NCBI RefSeq assembly: GCF_002532075.1
Contig: NZ_LYXE01000170.1
Span: 1 to 64,000 of the forward strand
Source: Candidatus Chloroploca asiatica
GTDB lineage: Bacteria; Chloroflexota; Chloroflexia; Chloroflexales; Chloroflexaceae
Direction: 5' to 3'
DNA length: 64,000 nucleotides
How positions within the stretch are numbered: position 1 is the stretch's first letter; each line of letters opens with the position of its first letter. The translations under genes were made by a program, and so were the position numbers. Positions 335-19,262 of the stretch are shown here, one piece after another. The notes under the pieces were generated by a model. The model searched no databases. It was not told the origin of the DNA and worked only from the letters and a program-made list of their open reading frames with translations.

Positions 335-3300
335 GTTTCAATGCTCGCCCGGCACGATGGCCGGGCGCGACTCGTTGATCGCATCGACCAGGAACGCCAC
401 TTCGGGTTTCAATGCTCGCCCGGCACGATGGCCGGGCGCGACGCCAACACCGAGCGCCAGATCGCTCAATTCTCAATGTTTCAATGCTCGCCCGGCACGA
501 TGGCCGGGCGCGACACGGCAACCACCGACGGGCGCGACGATGCCATGTTGTTTCAATGCTCGCCCGGCACGATGGCCGGGCGCGACTGACGGATCAACGC
601 AGTGCCGGGAGTGCCAGGATGGTTTCAATGCTCGCCCGGCACGATGGCCGGGCGCGACGCCAGCGCATCTACGGATCGAGCGCTGATGGCGAGATGTTTC
701 AATGCTCGCCCGGCACGATGGCCGGGCGCGACCCGCAAGCGGTTCACGCGCCAGCCCTCGCTGTACCCGTTTCAATGCTCGCCCGGCACGATGGCCGGGC
801 GCGACTGACAATAGCATACTGACAGAAATTATGCAATAGGGGTTTCAATGCTCGCCCGGCACGATGGCCGGGCGCGACGTCAAGCCACTTCATTTCACCT
901 TCGTAAGTGTGGTTTCAATGCTCGCCCGGCACGATGGCCGGGCGCGACAGTTGCTCCTCAACCTGGCACAGCGCCGCGTGCGCTGTTTCAATGCTCGCCC
1001 GGCACGATGGCCGGGCGCGACGTTGATCCGTATCGGATCACAACGAGCGGCAAGCGTTTCAATGCTCGCCCGGCACGATGGCCGGGCGCGACCCCATCGG
1101 CCTGCTGCGGGCGGCTGAAGTCTGGGTGTTTCAATGCTCGCCCGGCACGATGGCCGGGCGCGACCGCAAAAGGCACGGTGCTCGCCTCGTGGAAGAGGGT
1201 TTCAATGCTCGCCCGGCACGATGGCCGGGCGCGACCCGGGCTGCATTGCCAGCGGGCGGCCACGTCGTCATACGTGTTTCAATGCTCGCCCGGCACGATG
1301 GCCGGGCGCGACCCGGCGGCTGTTGCGCAGTCCCGGCGTTTTTACGATGTTTCAATGCTCGCCCGGCACGATGGCCGGGCGCGACAAGGCTATGGCCCTC
1401 GCCAGCAGGCAGTACGAACGTTTCAATGCTCGCCCGGCACGATGGCCGGGCGCGACCGTCAACAGATCGCCGAAGCCGCGTGCGACATCCGCGTTTCAAT
1501 GCTCGCCCGGCACGATGGCCGGGCGCGACTGACTGATCACCTTGACGACCAGGCCGCCGAGTTGTTTCAATGCTCGCCCGGCACGATGGCCGGGCGCGAC
1601 ATCCGCCTCTGGAGCCGAGCGGCAGCGGGACAAGTTTCAATGCTCGCCCGGCACGATGGCCGGGCGCGACGTTCCACGCTGGACGCTGATTGATCGTCGT
1701 GAGCACTGTTTCAATGCTCGCCCGGCACGATGGCCGGGCGCGACACGAGAAACGTATAGAAGCTTTACGGAATGAAATGTTTCAATGCTCGCCCGGCACG
1801 ATGGCCGGGCGCGACGCGGCTGTTGCGCAGCCCCGGCGTTTTTACGATGTTTCAATGCTCGCCCGGCACGATGGCCGGGCGCGACGCTGCGTCGGGCGCT
1901 TGTGCATAGAGGCAAGGATGAGGTTTCAATGCTCGCCCGGCACGATGGCCGGGCGCGACAGAACCAACAACTCTTCGGCAAGTCGCTCGAAGAGTTTCAA
2001 TGCTCGCCCGGCACGATGGCCGGGCGCGACCGGTCGAGGCGCTGAACCCGGGCGAGAGTGCGACGGGTTTCAATGCTCGCCCGGCACGATGGCCGGGCGC
2101 GACCATAGCCACTGACAATCTCCGACGCCCCCACTTCGAACACGTTTCAATGCTCGCCCGGCACGATGGCCGGGCGCGACAAGTGCAATCTTGGCACCGC
2201 CACCATTGCTCGCCTGTTTCAATGCTCGCCCGGCACGATGGCCGGGCGCGACTTTCGGGATCGCCTGGTGTCGCCCATTGTTGATCTGTTTCAATGCTCG
2301 CCCGGCACGATGGCCGGGCGCGACAATCCACGGTGTACCGAAAGAAACGATTGAAAGGATGTTTCAATGCTCGCCCGGCACGATGGCCGGGCGCGACGGC
2401 GGTGGTTCGCCCAATCGCCACGAGTGCATAAGGAGTTTCAATGCTCGCCCGGCACGATGGCCGGGCGCGACAATATACCGCCATTCTCGCCTCGGTGTCA
2501 GGCGACGTTTCAATGCTCGCCCGGCACGATGGCCGGGCGCGACGCGGGTACTGCCGCGCTCAGAGCCCCACCGGAAAGGTTTCAATGCTCGCCCGGCACG
2601 ATGGCCGGGCGCGACGCTCGTTGATCGCATCGACCAGGAAGGCCACTTCGGGTTTCAATGCTCGCCCGGCACGATGGCCGGGCGCGACCACCGAGTGGCG
2701 GCAAGGACGGCGCGTGGTGTGGAGTGTGTTTCAATGCTCGCCCGGCACGATGGCCGGGCGCGACTCAGCGCCCGCAACGAGTTGATTGAGTGCAACCTGT
2801 TTCAATGCTCGCCCGGCACGATGGCCGGGCGCGACTGTTTGATACGGCCCATAGGAGGCCGCATCAAACAGTTTCAATGCTCGCCCGGCACGATGGCCGG
2901 GCGCGACGCGGGTACTGCCGCGCTCAGAGCCCCACCGGAAAGGTTTCAATGCTCGCCCGGCACGATGGCCGGGCGCGACGCCGATAGCCGCCTGCGTTCA
3001 TCGTGTCATTGATGTTTCAATGCTCGCCCGGCACGATGGCCGGGCGCGACCTGGCGTCACGAAGCATATCGGGGCTTGTTGGTCGTTTCAATGCTCGCCC
3101 GGCACGATGGCCGGGCGCGACGAACGGCATCACGCAGGCTAACGTCGAAACCGCCGTGTTTCAATGCTCGCCCGGCACGATGGCCGGGCGCGACAACAGA
3201 CGTTTGGCGCGGCGAACGTGTTGCCGGTGTTTCAATGCTCGCCCGGCACGATGGCCGGGCGCGACGTGTTAGCGGCGCGCCTCATCGAGGGCATCACGTG

Positions 3301-6018
3301 GTTTCAATGCTCGCCCGGCACGATGGCCGGGCGCGACAGGCGAATGCCGTGCTTGCGGTTGACCCGTTGCTGCGTTTCAATGCTCGCCCGGCACGATGGC
3401 CGGGCGCGACCGACTCATATCCGCGTGGTACGCACCCGCTAAGGAGTTTCAATGCTCGCCCGGCACGATGGCCGGGCGCGACGAATGAGGGCCACCTTGC
3501 CCGCGTGCGGTATCAGCGTTTCAATGCTCGCCCGGCACGATGGCCGGGCGCGACCGCATGATCGCCGGGGCCATTGATGACTACATTGACGTTTCAATGC
3601 TCGCCCGGCACGATGGCCGGGCGCGACGCGCACAACCCGCGCCTGCCCTGCTCTCAACACGAAAGTTTCAATGCTCGCCCGGCACGATGGCCGGGCGCGA
3701 CGGCAGCGTCTTGCATCAACATACTCTGCGGCACATCGTTTCAATGCTCGCCCGGCACGATGGCCGGGCGCGACCGCCCATCGTCGATCTGAACGTGCGT
3801 GCGTTGGTGTTTCAATGCTCGCCCGGCACGATGGCCGGGCGCGACCACTTGCAACAGCACGCTCTTGATCGCGCCGCGCTGGTTTCAATGCTCGCCCGGC
3901 ACGATGGCCGGGCGCGACGACCGAGATGGCCCCGGCAACAAGCCGCCCCGTGCTGTTTCAATGCTCGCCCGGCACGATGGCCGGGCGCGACCGGTGATGT
4001 AGTTTGTTGTGTGAGCCTCTGTCACGGGTTTCAATGCTCGCCCGGCACGATGGCCGGGCGCGACCTTGGCTTTACCTCGCCGCTGGTGTCGCCATCCTTT
4101 GTTTCAATGCTCGCCCGGCACGATGGCCGGGCGCGACCACGGGGATGGGCGTCGGATGCAAAGCCTTCTGGGTTTCAATGCTCGCCCGGCACGATGGCCG
4201 GGCGCGACGTCGAACTGCGCCGCTACTGTGAGGAACTTGAGAGGTTTCAATGCTCGCCCGGCACGATGGCCGGGCGCGACATCCACCCGGCGTTGATGCC
4301 TCGATGATAACCGTTTCAATGCTCGCCCGGCACGATGGCCGGGCGCGACCGTTTCACCGCTTGCATCAAACAGCACCGGCGACGGGTTTCAATGCTCGCC
4401 CGGCACGATGGCCGGGCGCGACGGCTTCTTTTCGGTCGCTGGCCTTTTCCGCTTCCGGTTTCAATGCTCGCCCGGCACGATGGCCGGGCGCGACATTGCC
4501 GGGGCACCCACGGGCGGCGACTTCTACTACGTTTCAATGCTCGCCCGGCACGATGGCCGGGCGCGACTTGATGAAATCGTAATGGGTGTGCGTCGCGGCG
4601 TTGTTTCAATGCTCGCCCGGCACGATGGCCGGGCGCGACAGTTCCCGTGGGCGAACCAGGCCACAGCCGACGTTGTTTCAATGCTCGCCCGGCACGATGG
4701 CCGGGCGCGACGCTTGGAAGGCCACGATTGGCACTCCGAGGACTGTGTTTCAATGCTCGCCCGGCACGATGGCCGGGCGCGACCGCTATAACCTGATGTC
4801 AAAGATAGCATACCAGTGTAAGTTTCAATGCTCGCCCGGCACGATGGCCGGGCGCGACGTCGAAAAAACAAGGCATTGGCATTGACAGGATACCAGTTTC
4901 AATGCTCGCCCGGCACGATGGCCGGGCGCGACATCAATAAACGCATGAATAAGCGCGGCAAACAATAAGTTTCAATGCTCGCCCGGCACGATGGCCGGGC
5001 GCGACGCGCTGGCGGGGTTGATGGCGGCAGGGCACGCGACGTTTCAATGCTCGCCCGGCACGATGGCCGGGCGCGACAAGCGGCGCGGGCGCTGTGGAAG
5101 GCCCACAACGATCTGTTTCAATGCTCGCCCGGCACGATACTGGCGAAATCACGAAGATCGCCACTGCCCCGACCCCACAACGATCTGTTTCAATGCTCGC
5201 CCGGCACGATGGCCGGGCGCGACTGACAATCTCTGCCGCTTTTAACGCGGCGCTCGGTGTTTCAATGCTCGCCCGGCACGATGGCCGGGCGCGACAATAG
5301 GCCGGCGCGCTATTTTCTCAACATATCACTAGTTTCAATGCTCGCCCGGCACGATGGCCGGGCGCGACAAGCAAGTTCAAGTGATTGAGCCGCAAGAGCA
5401 AGTTTCAATGCTCGCCCGGCACGATGGCCGGGCGCGACGGGGATGTACGCCGTCGCTGCGCTGTGCCTCGAAGTTTCAATGCTCGCCCGGCACGATGGCC
5501 GGGCGCGACTCGCCGCCCGTTGGCGCCCCGGCAATCGTCGCCCCGAGTTTCAATGCTCGCCCGGCACGATGGCCGGGCGCGACGCGGCAGTGGCACCACC
5601 ATCGGCACGCTGAACAACAGTTTCAATGCTCGCCCGGCACGATGGCCGGGCGCGACGGCCTTGGGGCCAGTGGGGTGAGCGTGCCATTGGTGTTTCAATG
5701 CTCGCCCGGCACGATGGCCGGGCGCGACCTGGCAGCGCAATGACGGCTATGGCCCTGCCACGGTTTCAATGCTCGCCCGGCACGATGGCCGGGCGCGACC
5801 CGAGGTGTGCCTCGACACTCGACACGCTGCCGTCGTGTTTCAATGCTCGCCCGGCACGATGGCCGGGCGCGACGTATCTGTTCAGTCACGGCACGCAGCA
5901 GGCAGACGGTTTCAATGCTCGCCCGGCACGATGGCCGGGCGCGACCTTGGCTTTACCTCGCCGCTGGTGTCGCCATCCTTTGTTTCAATGCTCGCCCGGC
6001 ACGATGGCCGGGCGCGAC
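335..6018 (-). CRISPR. Type I-C CRISPR array, 78 intact 37-bp repeats plus one aberrant unit
   Basis: Read on the minus strand, the repeat is 37 bp, begins GTCGCGCCCGGCC and ends GCGAGCATTGAAAC. It contains an 8-bp hairpin (CGCCCGGC / GCCGGGCG) around a 6-nt loop. The ATTGAAAC 3' end and the neighbouring cas genes are typical of type I-C, where Cas5 cuts 3' of the hairpin. I walked the array repeat by repeat: first repeat 335-371, last (leader-proximal) 5982-6018, spacers about 33-38 nt. The intact repeats appear identical. The only irregular unit is at 5102-5210. Two spacer pairs are identical (4065-4100 and 5946-5981; 2544-2578 and 2908-2942). Two differ by one base (372-405 and 2616-2651; 1313-1348 and 1816-1848). 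The spacer at 2836-2870 is itself a near-perfect inverted repeat. Apparent ORFs here are artefacts of the repeat. Confidence 0.98.
5102..5210. repeat. Off-register spacer insertion inside the array (37-bp duplication flanking 35 bp)
   Basis: Positions 5102-5138 and 5174-5210 are an exact 37-bp direct repeat, with different bases on both sides. It consists of the last 13 bp of one spacer (CCCACAACGATCT) plus the first 24 bp of the repeat on the plus strand. Between the copies lie 35 unrelated bases (5139-5173). Both lengths are exactly those of a normal repeat and spacer, but the register is shifted by 13 bp. This is the product expected if Cas1-Cas2 integrated a prespacer with the right ruler length but the wrong anchor. 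The repeat fragment at 5115-5138 lacks the 13 bases carrying one hairpin arm, so this unit should not be processed normally. Confidence 0.85.
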
Positions 6019-6230
6019 GCCACTAAATAGCCGTTTTACCTTCGTTTTGGGTTGTTAAGGTGCAAGACGAAGGTTGATTATTGCTTTGCAGAACCTTCAT
6101 ACAACGCTCAGATACCTCTGGTAGCTGTCTTGAAGCTGTGTTATTGTCATGTTGATGCGCGAACCTCCCAGGATTTTGTGAGCATTCTGGGTTCGCGTTG
6201 TCACCCCCTATATCTAGTAGGCTTCTGAAG
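6019..6230 (-). promoter_or_regulatory. CRISPR leader
   Basis: This 212-bp, relatively AT-rich, ORF-free stretch separates the cas2 stop from the first repeat, on the side where type I-C leaders lie. It holds an inverted repeat at 6158-6197 (CGCGAACC ... GGTTCGCG, extended by CCCAG/CTGGG) that could be an IHF-like or integration-complex recognition element. It also holds the 10-mer TGTGAGCATT (6177-6186), which recurs in the candidate operator upstream of the wHTH gene at 15185-15194. I could not place a confident promoter by eye. Confidence 0.75.
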
Positions 6231-6521
6231 TTAAAAAATAAGCGGCTCGCGCTGGTCATGTTCAAGTGGTTTGCCCAGAACAGTGACATATTTTTTCCGT
6301 GGCTCTTGCAGCCGGTAGAGGCGGAGATTGTCTTGTTCTACGTCAATCTCTTGTTCAAGTGCGTCAATGAGTAGAGCCAAATTCACCTGATCAATGACAC
6401 ACTCGAAGACAGAGAGTTGCACTCGTTGACCAAACCGCTCACAAACTTTTGCCACACGTCGAAGTCTCCTCCGGCCTGCTGCTGTCTCTGTGTTGACATC
6501 GTATGTTATCAGAAGCTCCAA
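6231..6521 (-). CDS. cas2: CRISPR-associated endonuclease/integration subunit Cas2
   Basis: Cas2 forms the central dimer of the Cas1-Cas2 spacer integrase. The 96-residue length is normal for type I-C. The N-terminus MELLITYDVNTE is the first beta strand of the ferredoxin-like fold with the conserved Asp (YDV), followed by the arginine-rich helix after TAAGRRRLRR and by LSVFEC, the usual QxSVFE-like strand. It lies 8 bp after cas1 and is the last gene of the operon, next to the leader. It is probably co-translated with cas1. Nothing suggests loss of function. Confidence 0.96.
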   Translation of the reverse strand: MELLITYDVNTETAAGRRRLRRVAKVCERFGQRVQLSVFECVIDQVNLALLIDALEQEIDVEQDNLRLYRLQEPRKKYVTVLGKPLEHDQREPLIF

Positions 6522-7568: not shown

Positions 7569-8249
7569 CTACTCCACTTCACTTATAGCCTGAGGTTTGT
7601 AAAGCTCGGCTTGCATGATCCGTAGGCGTCGTTCTTGCCCAACGATCTCAGGGAGACAGGCATTGATCAACGAACAGTTTGGGCAACGAGCATCATGTGC
7701 CGCAGGAGGGAGCATATCCTGGTTCATTAGCATCTCCCTGATCGCTGCGACAAACTGCAGTGTCTGCGCCCGTAGTTCTGAATCAAAGATGATTTCGTGG
7801 CGTTTGCGGGTAGCTCCATAATAGATTGCCCCACGAGGGACTGAGACGTGAAACATCTCTTCAAGACATATGGCCTGAGCGCATAGTTGAACATCAGCAT
7901 GTCTGCCATGGCGACGTCCGACTTTGTATTCAACAGGATAAGGCACATCATTGTGCCATTCGACTACGTCGGCTTTACCTTGTAAGCCATACTCTTCCGA
8001 CCAGAGTGGTAAGCCGCGCTGCGTGATGGTGCCACGATTAGGTGTCTTGTCACCACTATCTACCCGCTCATGAGCCAGGCTGCCACGAATAGTGTACACA
8101 TTTTCATCATAAGTCTGCTCGATGTGAATCAGGGCGCATTGGCGTGGGCAGTAGCTATAATGCTCAATCGCCGAGAGCAATACGTCGGGATGCATGTCGT
8201 CTTCAGTGTATGGCGGCACACCCGAGGGTTTTTGTTGATATGAATTCAT
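7569..8249 (-). CDS. cas4: Cas4 exonuclease, prespacer processing (type I-C)
   Basis: Cas4 is a RecB-family iron-sulphur nuclease that trims prespacers and fixes PAM and orientation for Cas1-Cas2. The 226 residues include the first cluster cysteine region CPRQC (about residues 33-37), the nuclease acidic motifs GKADVVEW and PVEYK (D...ExK), and a C-terminal CPNCSLINAC supplying the remaining cluster cysteines. A second ATG (MHPDVLL, residue 19) is a possible alternative start. It sits between cas7 (5-bp gap) and cas1. Duplicate spacers that share their repeat-proximal ends but differ in length at the distal end are what PAM-anchored trimming would give. Confidence 0.95.
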   Translation of the reverse strand: MNSYQQKPSGVPPYTEDDMHPDVLLSAIEHYSYCPRQCALIHIEQTYDENVYTIRGSLAHERVDSGDKTPNRGTITQRGLPLWSEEYGLQGKADVVEWHNDVPYPVEYKVGRRHGRHADVQLCAQAICLEEMFHVSVPRGAIYYGATRKRHEIIFDSELRAQTLQFVAAIREMLMNQDMLPPAAHDARCPNCSLINACLPEIVGQERRLRIMQAELYKPQAISEVE

Positions 8250-11641: not shown

Positions 11642-14600
11642 TTAAAAGATCATCAACGATCGTTCGTCATCGGGAACCAGACCCCGTATATGATCATATT
11701 GCCCATGCCAGATACCAATGCCTTCCAGGGGAAGTTCTTCAATGAGACCGGACTTGCGATGCTGCTGTGCCTCACGCAGAGGAATCGAGACAAGATAGGG
11801 CTGAAGTCGACGGATGGCAGTACGAGCCTGAGCCGGCTCTTCCCGCAAGAGTGTCAGTGCATCTTGCACATACTGGTGTATGACATCGTTATCTGGTGGA
11901 TAGGTTGTAACGACAACATGCTCGATTGCCTCATCAATAAGGTGGAACCGTTTGGCAACCTCAGGATAATTCAGTTGCTCACGCAGCACCTGGATTTGCT
12001 TGCTATCCAGGTCAATACTTGCAAACAACTCCCGGAAGTAGCGGCGCAGATCATCAGGAGCATCAAGATCCACACCAACTCCGCCAACAAGGGTTCGCGT
12101 GACATCGGTGGCAGTTCGATATGCTCCTGAAGGGATGCCACCATCAACTGGCTCAAAAACAACAACACGTCCACGTTCCAGAAGCCCTTCACGATTGCAA
12201 CGCCCAGCTGCCTGGATCACCCGATCGAGCGGCCCGAACGCACGGAACACGAGGGGAAAATCGAGGTCAACACCGGCCTCAATCACCTGGGTTGAAATCA
12301 GGCGGCACGGTAGCCCGTTCTGAAGACGTGCTTTGACTTGTGCAATCACATCACGACGATGAGCACCACAGAGCAGGGTAGAAAGATGGATTGCGGTCGG
12401 GTCTTCCATAGCCTCAAGCAGTGCCAACGCATCTTTTTTCGTATTGACGACAACCAGGGCTTGCGGATGTGCGTGGAGCATCTTCGCAATATCTGCCCAC
12501 GCCAGCGGCTGTTCAATGTGCCACTCATACTCGACTCGTTTGAGCGCCCGAAACCATTGGACTGCATCAGGAATAATCTCGTGTGCTCGTAGGTCGGCAA
12601 ACGCCTTGATATGCTCAAAGGCTGGTTGCGTAGCTGTCGAGAGGACAACAGTAGAGCCGTAATTGGTACAAAGCTCTTTCAGACCATCGAGGATTGGTGC
12701 CAACATTCCTGCTGGTAACGCCTGAGCCTCATCGAGAATAATCACACTTCGGGCAAGACGGTGCAGCTTGCGGCAACGACCAGTTTGATGAGCAAACATG
12801 CTCTCAAAGAGTTGCACTGTTGTTGTGACTACGACTGGTGCATCCCAGTTTTCCGCAGCAAGCCGTTGCCAGCGCGCTTCTGGGCTATATTCATGATCGT
12901 CACGCCCTGTAACACCACTGTGATGTTCGAGTACAAGTGGCTCGGAGTCATCCTCATGCTCAAAGATCGCACGGTATTCCTCTGCTGTCTGTTCAGTGAT
13001 GCTGATAAAAGGCACTGCTACAATGATACGACGAAGACCATGATGTACCGCATGTTGCAATCCAAAGACCATGCCTGAGCGTGTCTTGCCGCCACCAGTT
13101 GGTATTGCGAGACGAAAGAGCCCGGGCGGTAGTTCGGCTGCAGCAACACATGCCTGGTACATGGCATCGCGTGCTGTGTTGACAAACGTGGTTTGGCGGT
13201 TAGCCTCAAGATGTTTCTGATTAACCATAAAGCGTGCCAGCAAGTCTGCCATTGTTACTGAACTACCACGAAGTTTAGCGCGTTGCTGGTTCATGTGAGC
13301 TTCAGTATCGAGATAATCTGCATCGACCAATGCTGAAAAGAGCATGCGTAGGAAAAATTCGCTCCCTCGAGAATCCTTCACAAAAGAAGGCCCCTCAAGT
13401 GGCTTGGTTGGTTCGATCTCTGGTAGCAATACTTGCACGCGACGAATAGCCTCCTCCACCGAAGAGGTTTTGCCATCGGGTTCAAGGTCTTTTGTCTGAC
13501 GTTCCTTCAGCCATGTGCGGCACTCAACCAGCGTATTGAGGCCACCATGATGACCTTGGATCAGCAATGCAAGCGCATCCATATGACGTGTGGCAAAGGT
13601 TGCTCCTGCCGCTTTATGATCCGGACCACGCTGCTTTCTTGTGGGATTGGCATAACATTGTCGGAGGTATGCCTGAAAAGCCGGGCGACTTTTACCAATA
13701 TCGTGCCAGAGCCCAAGATAATAACCAAGTGTGCCCGCACCAAAAGGCTCTGCAAATTCACGGGTTAGCTCTGCAACCCTTTTGAGGTGCCCACTCAAGG
13801 TGTGCCATGCAGTAGAACCGTGGGCAGGGGTATGTGCAACCAATTCGTCATCAGGGCTAGTCGTGTGCTCTATCCCATACATCCGCATCTGCCGCCGTAC
13901 TTCGCCAATGATCTGTTCACGCAGGGGCGTTGGCTCGATCACTTCACACGCTGGTCCCCAGCCCCTGATCCAGCCCATCATCTCCTGGGGTTCATCAATC
14001 TCGGCTGTCCAGTTCAACTTTGCTTCGTTATCCACTTCGGTATGTTGCGAAGGATGCCAGACGGCCTCAAGTACCCGTCGGATCGTTTGATTGCCACTGA
14101 AACGCAGCCGTACGGTTGTTGGCTGATCGTCCAGGTCAAACCAGATGCCCCATGCTCCGGCGAGCAGGGCGTTGGGATCAAAGTCTGGAGGTATGGTGAA
14201 GGGTTCGTCGGTGAGTTCGATGCGTTCGATGCGTTCGACTTTGCGGGTGCGCAGTTTGCCCGGTGGCTCGGCGAGGCCAATGGCGTAGGTGCTGTAGCCG
14301 ATCGCTGATGGTTCGAGCATATATGGCGCAAAGGTGTGTTGAAAGGCGCGTTGCGCCTGCAATGGGCGGTACCACATACGGAGTTTGACGCCCGTGGCCC
14401 AGGCTTCGGTGAGCTTTTCCAGGGTACGCTGATAGTCGCCAGGTTGTTTTGGCAAGCGGTTGCGCAAGATGGTCGTCGTGCCGCTGATGTGCTGGCCGAG
14501 CACCGGCATCAAGCTCTGCAATGATGTGCCGAGTTTTTCAAGCGTCGCAACCGTGTGTTCGTTCGGTTTGTCGCTATAGCGTGCGAGCAGACGACACGCC

Positions 14601-14857
14601 AGAAAGACGGCGAGGGCTTCGTGCAGACGGAGATGGATCTGGCTGAGGTAGGCGGTGCGTTCGATGTAGATCAGGCCGTCGTCAGTTAGGCGGACGGGAA
14701 TGCCGTTGTCGATCATCCCTTGCACCAGGCGTCCAATCGTTGAACGATGCACTTCGCAGCGACGGGCTATTTCCGCCTGCGAAAGCGGCACGCGACTCGT
14801 CAATAAAAGCCGCTCTACCTGTCCAATGCGATCTGATTTGGCAAATGCTCGTGTCAT
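11642..14857 (-). CDS. cas3: WYL-domain regulator fused to Cas3 HD nuclease-helicase
   Basis: From ATG 14857 (GCAGGAGAGAACC upstream; the longer frame uses TTG inside this site) the protein has 1071 residues. Residues about 1-65 are a winged helix-turn-helix (LSQAEIARRCEVHRSTIGRL). Residues about 145-325 look like a WYL domain with C-terminal extension: KLRMWYRPL, then YMLEPSAIGYSTYAIGL, then TTVRLRFSGNQ and HPSQH. A normal Cas3 follows: HD domain (H357, WHDIGK 384-389, HH 436-437), Walker A IPTGGGKT (585-592), DEAQ (709-712), STATQP (740-745), and motifs V/VI STQVIEAGVDLD and QAAGRCNREG. The effector nuclease is thus covalently joined to a DNA-binding, ligand-sensing regulator module. Helicase and nuclease motifs look intact. 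It is the second gene of the operon, after a small wHTH gene. Confidence 0.93.
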   Translation of the reverse strand: MTRAFAKSDRIGQVERLLLTSRVPLSQAEIARRCEVHRSTIGRLVQGMIDNGIPVRLTDDGLIYIERTAYLSQIHLRLHEALAVFLACRLLARYSDKPNEHTVATLEKLGTSLQSLMPVLGQHISGTTTILRNRLPKQPGDYQRTLEKLTEAWATGVKLRMWYRPLQAQRAFQHTFAPYMLEPSAIGYSTYAIGLAEPPGKLRTRKVERIERIELTDEPFTIPPDFDPNALLAGAWGIWFDLDDQPTTVRLRFSGNQTIRRVLEAVWHPSQHTEVDNEAKLNWTAEIDEPQEMMGWIRGWGPACEVIEPTPLREQIIGEVRRQMRMYGIEHTTSPDDELVAHTPAHGSTAWHTLSGHLKRVAELTREFAEPFGAGTLGYYLGLWHDIGKSRPAFQAYLRQCYANPTRKQRGPDHKAAGATFATRHMDALALLIQGHHGGLNTLVECRTWLKERQTKDLEPDGKTSSVEEAIRRVQVLLPEIEPTKPLEGPSFVKDSRGSEFFLRMLFSALVDADYLDTEAHMNQQRAKLRGSSVTMADLLARFMVNQKHLEANRQTTFVNTARDAMYQACVAAAELPPGLFRLAIPTGGGKTRSGMVFGLQHAVHHGLRRIIVAVPFISITEQTAEEYRAIFEHEDDSEPLVLEHHSGVTGRDDHEYSPEARWQRLAAENWDAPVVVTTTVQLFESMFAHQTGRCRKLHRLARSVIILDEAQALPAGMLAPILDGLKELCTNYGSTVVLSTATQPAFEHIKAFADLRAHEIIPDAVQWFRALKRVEYEWHIEQPLAWADIAKMLHAHPQALVVVNTKKDALALLEAMEDPTAIHLSTLLCGAHRRDVIAQVKARLQNGLPCRLISTQVIEAGVDLDFPLVFRAFGPLDRVIQAAGRCNREGLLERGRVVVFEPVDGGIPSGAYRTATDVTRTLVGGVGVDLDAPDDLRRYFRELFASIDLDSKQIQVLREQLNYPEVAKRFHLIDEAIEHVVVTTYPPDNDVIHQYVQDALTLLREEPAQARTAIRRLQPYLVSIPLREAQQHRKSGLIEELPLEGIGIWHGQYDHIRGLVPDDERSLMIF

Positions 14858-14902
14858 GGTTCTCTCCTGCAATTGAGCATATCATATGCCTGCGACCAAA
14901 AT

Positions 14903-18624: not shown

Positions 18625-19083
18625 CAACGGGGCACCCGCAAGGGGCGCCCGTACCGGGGCGGGGGCCGAATCCGGTGTAGGGGCACCCGCAAGGGGTGCC
18701 CCTACAGGCTGGGGGCCGGGCCCGGTGTACGGGCACCCCTTGCGGGTGCCCTGGCGTACAGGCCGGGGGCCGGGCCCGGTGTACGGGCACCCCTTGCGGG
18801 TGCCCTGGCGTACAGGCCGGGGGCCGGGCCCGGTGTACGGGCACCCCTTGCGGGTGCCCTGGCGTACAGGCTGGGGGCCGGGCCCGGTGTACGGGCACCC
18901 CTTGCGGGTGCCCTGGCGTACAGGCTGGGGGCCGGGCCCGGTGTACGGGCACCCCTTGCGGGTGCCCTGGCGTACAGGCTGGGGGCCGGGCCCGGTGTAC
19001 GGGCACCCCTTGCGGGTGCCCTGGCGTACAGGCTGGGGGCCGGGCCCGGTGTACGGGCACCCCTTGCGGGTGCCCTGGCGGGG
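18625..19083. repeat. 54-bp tandem array of a palindromic repeat
   Basis: A 54-bp unit recurs at 18725, 18779, 18833, 18887, 18941, 18995 and 19049 (last copy partial). Each unit contains the palindrome GGCACCCCTTGCGGGTGCC, then CTGGCGTACAGGC and GGGGGCCGGGCCCG. Two degenerate, partly inverted copies precede it (18625-18715). As 54 is a multiple of three, open frames run through in several phases; these are not genes. The same core is reused at 22,034-22,249. Confidence 0.9.
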
Positions 19084-19262
19084 CGCGTCCTTCGGCCCAT
19101 CTTTCCATGACCATCGTCACCCCGCTGTGATGACGATCGACACTCATCACGCCCCCCTGGCACGCTGTATCATACCAATGACGATAAACGCGTTAGACTC
19201 AACCGGAATTGGCATCATATCCATGCCGAGAAGGCTAAAGCTCATTGACAGGAGGTTCACTG

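What the first reader, a model, noticed from the sequence alone, without database searches (positions are those of the whole stretch)
5102..5210. Fossil of an off-register CRISPR spacer integration
Seen directly: a 37-bp exact direct repeat (5102-5138, 5174-5210), made of 13 bp of spacer plus 24 bp of repeat, flanks 35 unrelated bp. Both lengths equal the array's own repeat and spacer lengths, yet the register is displaced by 13 bp and the site is 12 repeats from the leader. Normal acquisition duplicates the leader-end repeat exactly. Inference: Cas1-Cas2(-Cas4) kept its ruler but lost its anchor, integrating inside a repeat hairpin at an internal site. The event destroys one copy of the repeat 5' arm, so the new spacer should be buried in a long unprocessed crRNA between repeats, i.e. 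a dead acquisition. This is a natural record of off-target integration that preserves ruler length.
Basis: partly seen in the sequence, partly recalled or inferred. Interest (0 to 1): 0.85.

Follow-up and report, generated by a model that had tools for sequence, protein, structure and literature searches.

The report
CRISPR spacer inserted 13 bases off-register
In a large CRISPR immune-memory array, one new memory (spacer) was pasted in 13 bases away from the correct junction with every length kept exact, probably because the repeat contains a look-alike of its own start 13 bases in; it is a real and rare natural record of how the insertion enzyme measures DNA, though only one case is known here.

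Summary
The array (335-6018, type I-C, crRNA on the minus strand, leader at 6019 onwards) has 78 perfect 37-nt repeats plus one 24-nt fragment. At unit 12 a 37-bp direct repeat (5102-5138, 5174-5210) flanks a 35-bp insert that occurs nowhere else in the genome. Both lengths are those of this array, but the register is shifted by 13 bp. One Cas1-Cas2(-Cas4) integration displaced by 13 bp explains this in one step; rivals need two matched events or a length coincidence.

New here: (1) repeat positions 14-24 (ATCGTGCCGGG) mimic the repeat start (GTCGCGCCCGG), 8/11, the best of 79 non-zero offsets tested; the second site also resembles the repeat 3' half. The shift therefore looks like recognition of a pseudo leader-repeat junction. 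(3) A survey of 99 arrays (4,512 repeats, mostly type I-C-like) found no second case. (4) The insert is out of register as a guide; the old spacer's fate is undecided. No protospacer, reads or sister strain could be examined. Known enzyme, rare aberrant product.

The parts
335..6018 (-). type I-C CRISPR array: 78 perfect 37-nt repeats (GTCGCGCCCGGCCATCGTGCCGGGCGAGCATTGAAAC) plus one truncated repeat
6019..6230 (-). leader region between cas2 and the first repeat; ends ...TTTAGTGGC at the repeat
   Evidence: the leader of relative G014 has the same TTTAGTGGC end
5187..5223 (-). intact repeat 12, leader side of the event
5200..5210 (-). internal mimic of the repeat start (repeat positions 14-24, ATCGTGCCGGG against GTCGCGCCCGG, 8/11); inferred pseudo leader-repeat junction, strand attack between 5211 and 5210
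   Evidence: best non-zero offset at every window length tested (tied with offset 56 at length 10); 66-repeat comparison
5174..5210 (-). leader-proximal copy of the 37-bp target duplication (repeat positions 14-37 + first 13 nt of old spacer 12)
5139..5173 (-). inserted 35-bp spacer X, GTCGGGGCAGTGGCGATCTTCGTGATTTCGCCAGT in crRNA orientation
5102..5138 (-). leader-distal copy of the 37-bp duplication: truncated repeat (24 nt, 5115-5138) + first 13 nt of old spacer 12 (5102-5114)
5078..5114 (-). old spacer 12 (37 nt), the spacer next to the target repeat before the event
5041..5077 (-). intact next repeat (repeat 13 of the perfect copies)
6231..6521 (-). cas2
   Evidence: TIGR01573
6530..7561 (-). 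cas1, type I-C
   Evidence: TIGR03640, 502 bits against a cut-off of 385
7569..8249 (-). cas4
   Evidence: TIGR00372
8255..14872 (-). cas7 (csd2), cas8c (csd1), cas5c, cas3 interference genes
   Evidence: cas3 domains

Best explanation
A prespacer was integrated by the locus's own Cas1-Cas2(-Cas4) complex into a repeat-spacer unit, but 13 bp downstream of the normal position. The first attack fell between repeat positions 13 and 14, in the hairpin loop, because positions 14-24 (ATCGTGCCGGG) resemble the true start of the repeat (GTCGCGCCCGG). The second attack fell on the other strand 37 bp away, inside the old spacer, because the spacing of the two active sites is fixed; a partial mimic of the repeat 3' half there (GATCGTTG against GAGCATTG) may have helped. 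Gap repair copied those 37 bp on both sides of the 35-bp spacer. The upstream repeat stayed whole, so the array kept working and, if the unit was at the leader at the time, gained spacers 1-11 later. Shown: lengths, junctions, uniqueness of the insert, the internal mimic, an apparently intact I-C adaptation operon. Inferred: the agent, the order of the attacks, and the role of the mimic.
For: Duplication exactly 37 = repeat length and insert 35 = one of the two commonest spacer lengths. Insert absent from the rest of the genome, so it is not a local copy or repair filler from the chromosome. The structure arises in one step only by a staggered 37-bp integration. Offset 13 is the best-matching non-zero offset to the repeat start, 8/11, 9/12 and 10/14, and stays best with leader bases included, tied once. 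Shuffled repeats reach 8/11 at offset 13 in 0.3% and at any offset in 6%. Over whole 37-bp windows the used site is in the top 0.8% of 5,533 off-register positions, and on a both-ends score it is rank 3-4, the latter score chosen after the fact. Full I-C cas operon. Published: non-CRISPR integration sites of S. thermophilus Cas1-Cas2 resemble a leader-repeat junction (PMC6895254); non-canonical sites of Francisella V-A Cas1 carry the repeat-end palindrome motif (PMC13034035).
Against: A single event, and no protospacer or PAM found for the insert. No reads and no sister strain with the empty site. The array of L079, with an even better internal mimic (9/11 at offset 13, 93 repeats), shows no such event. 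Within the offset-13 sites alone the used unit ranks only about 5 of 78.
Confidence: 0.82

Rival explanations
1. The same integrase error, but at a repeat that was already internal (ectopic and off-register), chosen because old spacer 12 begins with a mimic of the repeat's 3' half. (A sub-case of the best explanation; its probability is not additional.)
For: Unit 12's spacer start is the best match of all 78 to GAGCATTG, 6/8; in-register ectopic acquisition inside arrays is known in streptococci (PMC7999890, PMC5338259).
Against: Needs a second deviation (wrong repeat) on top of the shift; the present distance from the leader says nothing, since later acquisitions move every unit inwards.
Confidence: 0.25
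2. Ordinary in-register acquisition of the 35-bp spacer followed by two later changes: deletion of 13 bp from the repeat and insertion of 13 bp copied from the neighbouring spacer.
For: A relative (G014, L029) has a repeat with exactly a 13-bp internal deletion between its TCGCGCC copies, so 13-bp slippage in this repeat family does occur.
Against: In the window the deletion would have no microhomology (G1 against A14), and a second, compensating 13-bp copy of the neighbouring spacer on the far side of the insert is needed; the relative's case has no such copy.
Confidence: 0.05
3. DNA-repair tandem duplication with a 35-bp filler, lengths matching the array by coincidence.
For: Such duplications with filler exist in general (own knowledge).
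Against: Both lengths must match by luck (roughly 1 in 2,000 by my arithmetic); the filler has no source in the genome.
Confidence: 0.04
4. Assembly or sequencing artefact.
For: Draft assembly of 199 contigs; repetitive region; window starts at a contig end.
Against: The abnormal junctions lie in mid-repeat and mid-spacer, not at shared repeats where graph errors join; all other 78 repeats are perfect; the assembly even resolves an exact 111-bp duplicate in the array.
Confidence: 0.04

Closest known systems
Ectopic spacer acquisition in Streptococcus thermophilus CRISPR1/CRISPR3 (PMC5338259, PMC7999890) and S. mutans (PMC8265633)
   Same: new spacer away from its usual place in the array; a motif mimicking the leader was looked for at the hot spot
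   Different: as far as the passages read show, those are additions inside the array at repeats, not shifts inside a repeat; here the cut falls inside the repeat and the neighbouring spacer
Aberrant second-site integration by S. thermophilus II-A Cas1-Cas2 with mutated repeats, and off-target sites that resemble the leader-repeat junction (Kim et al. 2019, PMC6895254)
   Same: integrase accepts look-alike junctions; partial duplication of the neighbouring spacer
   Different: engineered or in vitro, repeat length changed; here wild-type repeat, natural array, duplication length kept and the whole frame moved
Non-canonical integration sites in the type V-A array of Francisella novicida (PMC13034035)
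   Same: Cas1 chooses sites that carry the motif found at the repeat ends
   Different: in vitro, different CRISPR type, seen in the presence of Cas1 alone
Spontaneous CRISPR loci by non-canonical spacer integration in E. coli (Nivala et al. 2018; known to me by title and as cited in PMC11788318, text not held)
   Same: Cas1-Cas2 integrates at sequences other than the leader repeat
   Different: outside arrays and under Cas1-Cas2 overexpression, as cited
Two molecular rulers in I-E repeats (Goren et al. 2016, as cited in PMC13034035 and described in PMC6895254)
   Same: concerns what fixes the second attack site
   Different: there a motif in the repeat sets the second site; in this event the second site moved together with the first

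Membership tests
Type I-C CRISPR-Cas locus | Cas1 of subtype I-C, with Cas2, Cas4, Cas5c, Cas7, Cas8c, Cas3 | tested here: met
   TIGR03640 502 bits (cut-off 385), TIGR01573, TIGR00372, TIGR01876, TIGR02589, TIGR01863 all above cut-off; Cas3 HD above cut-off (TIGR01596)
Type I-C CRISPR-Cas locus | array with repeats ending in ATTGAAAC next to cas2 | tested here: met
Cas1-Cas2 spacer integration | target duplication of repeat length flanking an insert of spacer length | tested here: met
   37 and 35 bp
Cas1-Cas2 spacer integration | duplication coincides with the repeat borders (canonical site) | tested here: not met
   displaced by 13 bp towards the old spacer; hence 'off-register', not canonical
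Cas1-Cas2 spacer integration | insert of foreign origin with a PAM next to the protospacer | tested here: inconclusive
   absent from the rest of the own genome; no protospacer in viral, phage, plasmid or GTDB contigs
Ectopic (leader-distal) acquisition | insertion at a repeat that was not leader-proximal at the time | not testable with these tools
   needs strains with and without the younger spacers
Degenerate-repeat explanation | truncated repeat without a matching copy of the neighbouring spacer | tested here: not met
   the 13-bp spacer copy is exact; contrast with the 13-bp deletion in L029

The most novel reading that the evidence does not exclude
In this 37-nt-repeat I-C system the position of the second attack is set by distance from the first attack (integrase geometry) and not by a motif in the repeat, so a pseudo-junction inside the repeat moves the whole 37-bp frame; repeats with internal mimics carry a built-in, testable error mode.
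Probability: 0.4. Interest if true: 0.6.

Novelty: new variant of a known kind. Interest (0 to 1): 0.5.

Why it matters
It is a natural record of a full, two-ended integration with the frame moved by 13 bp and both lengths kept. Motif-anchored rulers, as described for I-E, I-B and II-A, would predict a 24-bp duplication for this first site (second attack staying at the repeat-spacer border); a geometric ruler predicts 37 bp, which is what is seen. The partial mimic GATCGTTG at the second site keeps the motif model alive, and the two can be separated by a simple in-vitro test. It also gives a recognisable signature to search for in large CRISPR collections.

Tried and rejected
Protospacer searches: full 35-mer and 20-21-mer cores in IMG/VR, 35-mer in GTDB contigs, blastn in phages and plasmids; nothing beyond chance. 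Cores of old spacer 12 and of the duplicated spacer 1/26: no viral match. Pre-insertion strain: among 60 relatives only G014 has a similar repeat, and its arrays carry other spacers. A search for the repeat's 3' end (no mismatch) across 400 Chloroflexota genomes found only the own genome. Irregular intervals in other arrays were printed and read; they were runs of N, degenerate repeats, short or long spacers or edge effects, not shifted duplications. The paper by Nivala et al. is not held; Goren et al. was not read.

Full report
Observation. The window holds a CRISPR array at 335-6018 next to a complete type I-C operon on the minus strand (cas3, cas5c, cas8c, cas7, cas4, cas1, cas2). In crRNA orientation the repeat is GTCGCGCCCGGCCATCGTGCCGGGCGAGCATTGAAAC. 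There are 78 perfect copies and no other array with this repeat in the genome. The leader lies at 6019 onwards. Between the 12th and 13th perfect repeats the gap is 109 nt instead of about 35. It reads: first 13 nt of old spacer 12, a 35-nt insert X, repeat positions 14-37, then old spacer 12 in full. The 37 bp 'repeat 14-37 + spacer 1-13' therefore stand on both sides of X, exactly and with sharp edges.

Is it more than chance? All other repeats are perfect, the extra 13 matching bases have a chance expectation of about 5e-5 over all repeat pairs (my arithmetic), and both lengths equal those of the array. X is found nowhere else in the 5.8-Mb genome with up to 3 mismatches.

What it is. One staggered insertion with a 37-bp target duplication gives the structure in a single step. 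That is the signature of Cas1-Cas2 integration, with the frame moved 13 bp from the leader-side border into the repeat and, at the other end, 13 bp into the old spacer. The alternative of normal acquisition plus later changes needs a 13-bp deletion without microhomology and a matching 13-bp copy on the other side of X. Repair duplication with filler needs both lengths by luck and leaves X without a source.

Why 13? Repeat positions 14-24 (ATCGTGCCGGG) match positions 1-11 (GTCGCGCCCGG) at 8 of 11. Offset 13 is the best non-zero offset for windows of 8 to 14 nt (tied once, at 10 nt) and remains best, tied in one of three tests, when leader bases are included. Shuffled repeats reach this at offset 13 in 0.3% and at any offset in 6% of cases. 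Among 66 distinct repeats in my survey this one is among the seven with an internal mimic of 8/11 or better. The second site resembles the repeat's 3' half: GATCGTTG for GAGCATTG, the best such spacer start of all 78. Over whole 37-bp windows the used site is in the top 0.8% of 5,533 off-register positions in the array before the event; on a both-ends score, chosen after the fact, it is rank 3-4. Within the offset-13 class it is only about 5th of 78. In a relative (G014), whose repeat has the still closer internal pair TCGCGCC...TCGCGCC, one repeat has lost exactly 13 bp, so this internal pair is also a slippage site.

Literature in line with a pseudo-junction: off-target sites of S. thermophilus Cas1-Cas2 resemble the leader-repeat junction, and mutated repeats give aberrant second sites with partial spacer duplication (PMC6895254). 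Non-canonical sites of F. novicida V-A Cas1 carry the repeat-end motif (PMC13034035). [quoted passage not shown] in this frame X's 3' end (...CCAGT) would be the first to join, at repeat position 14 (inference).

Where in the array did it happen? It is not: each later acquisition at the leader moves older units inwards. Since the shift was downstream, the first repeat and its junction stayed whole, and normal acquisition could go on. A leader-proximal event needs one deviation, an internal one two. I favour leader-proximal but cannot test it.

Consequence. An intact repeat folds into the 8-bp hairpin (-18.3 kcal/mol); the 24-nt fragment alone does not (-3.0). With the end of X included, UUCGCC can pair with the surviving arm and restore the lowest four native pairs (-8.8, not better than shuffles); in the fold of the whole 183 nt another pairing is preferred. 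So processing at the fragment is doubtful but not excluded. Whatever happens there, a crRNA from the upstream repeat starts with 13 nt of old spacer 12 and only then X, so X is out of register as a guide. Old spacer 12 survives as a guide only if the fragment is still cut.

How rare? I collected arrays around Cas1 relatives in GTDB contigs and Chloroflexota genomes and searched for shifted repeat-length duplications: 99 arrays, 4,512 repeats, one case, this one. The irregular intervals that I printed were read and were something else. The survey leans to type I-C-like systems and to one phylum, and its detector requires exact copies near the normal period.

Limits. No protospacer was found, so foreign origin and PAM are unproved. 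There are no reads and no sister strain. The agent, the order of the attacks and the role of the mimic are inferred.

Verdict.

Noticed in passing
window 4065-4100 and 5946-5981: Spacer 26 and spacer 1 (the youngest) are identical over all 36 nt; spacers 42 and 47 are also identical (35 nt). Re-acquisition or recombination.
   Followed up: partly
window spacers 46/77 and 57/64 (about 2616-2651, 372-405, 1816-1848, 1313-1348): Near-identical spacers with one changed base share the leader-side first base but differ in length at the other end, as expected if the PAM end is fixed and the other end is trimmed loosely.
   Followed up: partly
window 2836-2870: Spacer 43 is itself an almost perfect palindrome (14-bp arms with one mismatch, TGTTTGATGCGGCC...GGCCGTATCAAACA), terminator-like.
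   Followed up: no
window 11642-14872: Cas3 is read in one frame with an N-terminal WYL/WCX-type regulator (WCX above cut-off, WYL and MarR-type HTH below it), i.e. a possible regulator-Cas3 fusion.
   Followed up: partly
L029 about 4239-4295: In relative G014 one I-C repeat has an exact 13-bp internal deletion between its two TCGCGCC copies, a slippage product of the same internal pair.
   Followed up: yes
L101 10918-11040: A cas1 match that stops at residue 306 is soon followed by a 30-nt partial repeat 10 nt upstream of the first full repeat; no room for cas2 between. Array fused near the end of cas1, or a mis-assembly.
   Followed up: no
window about 18690-19130: Tandem repeat region (repeating GHPQGVPVHRARPPACTP-like reading on the minus strand) between unrelated genes.
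   Followed up: no
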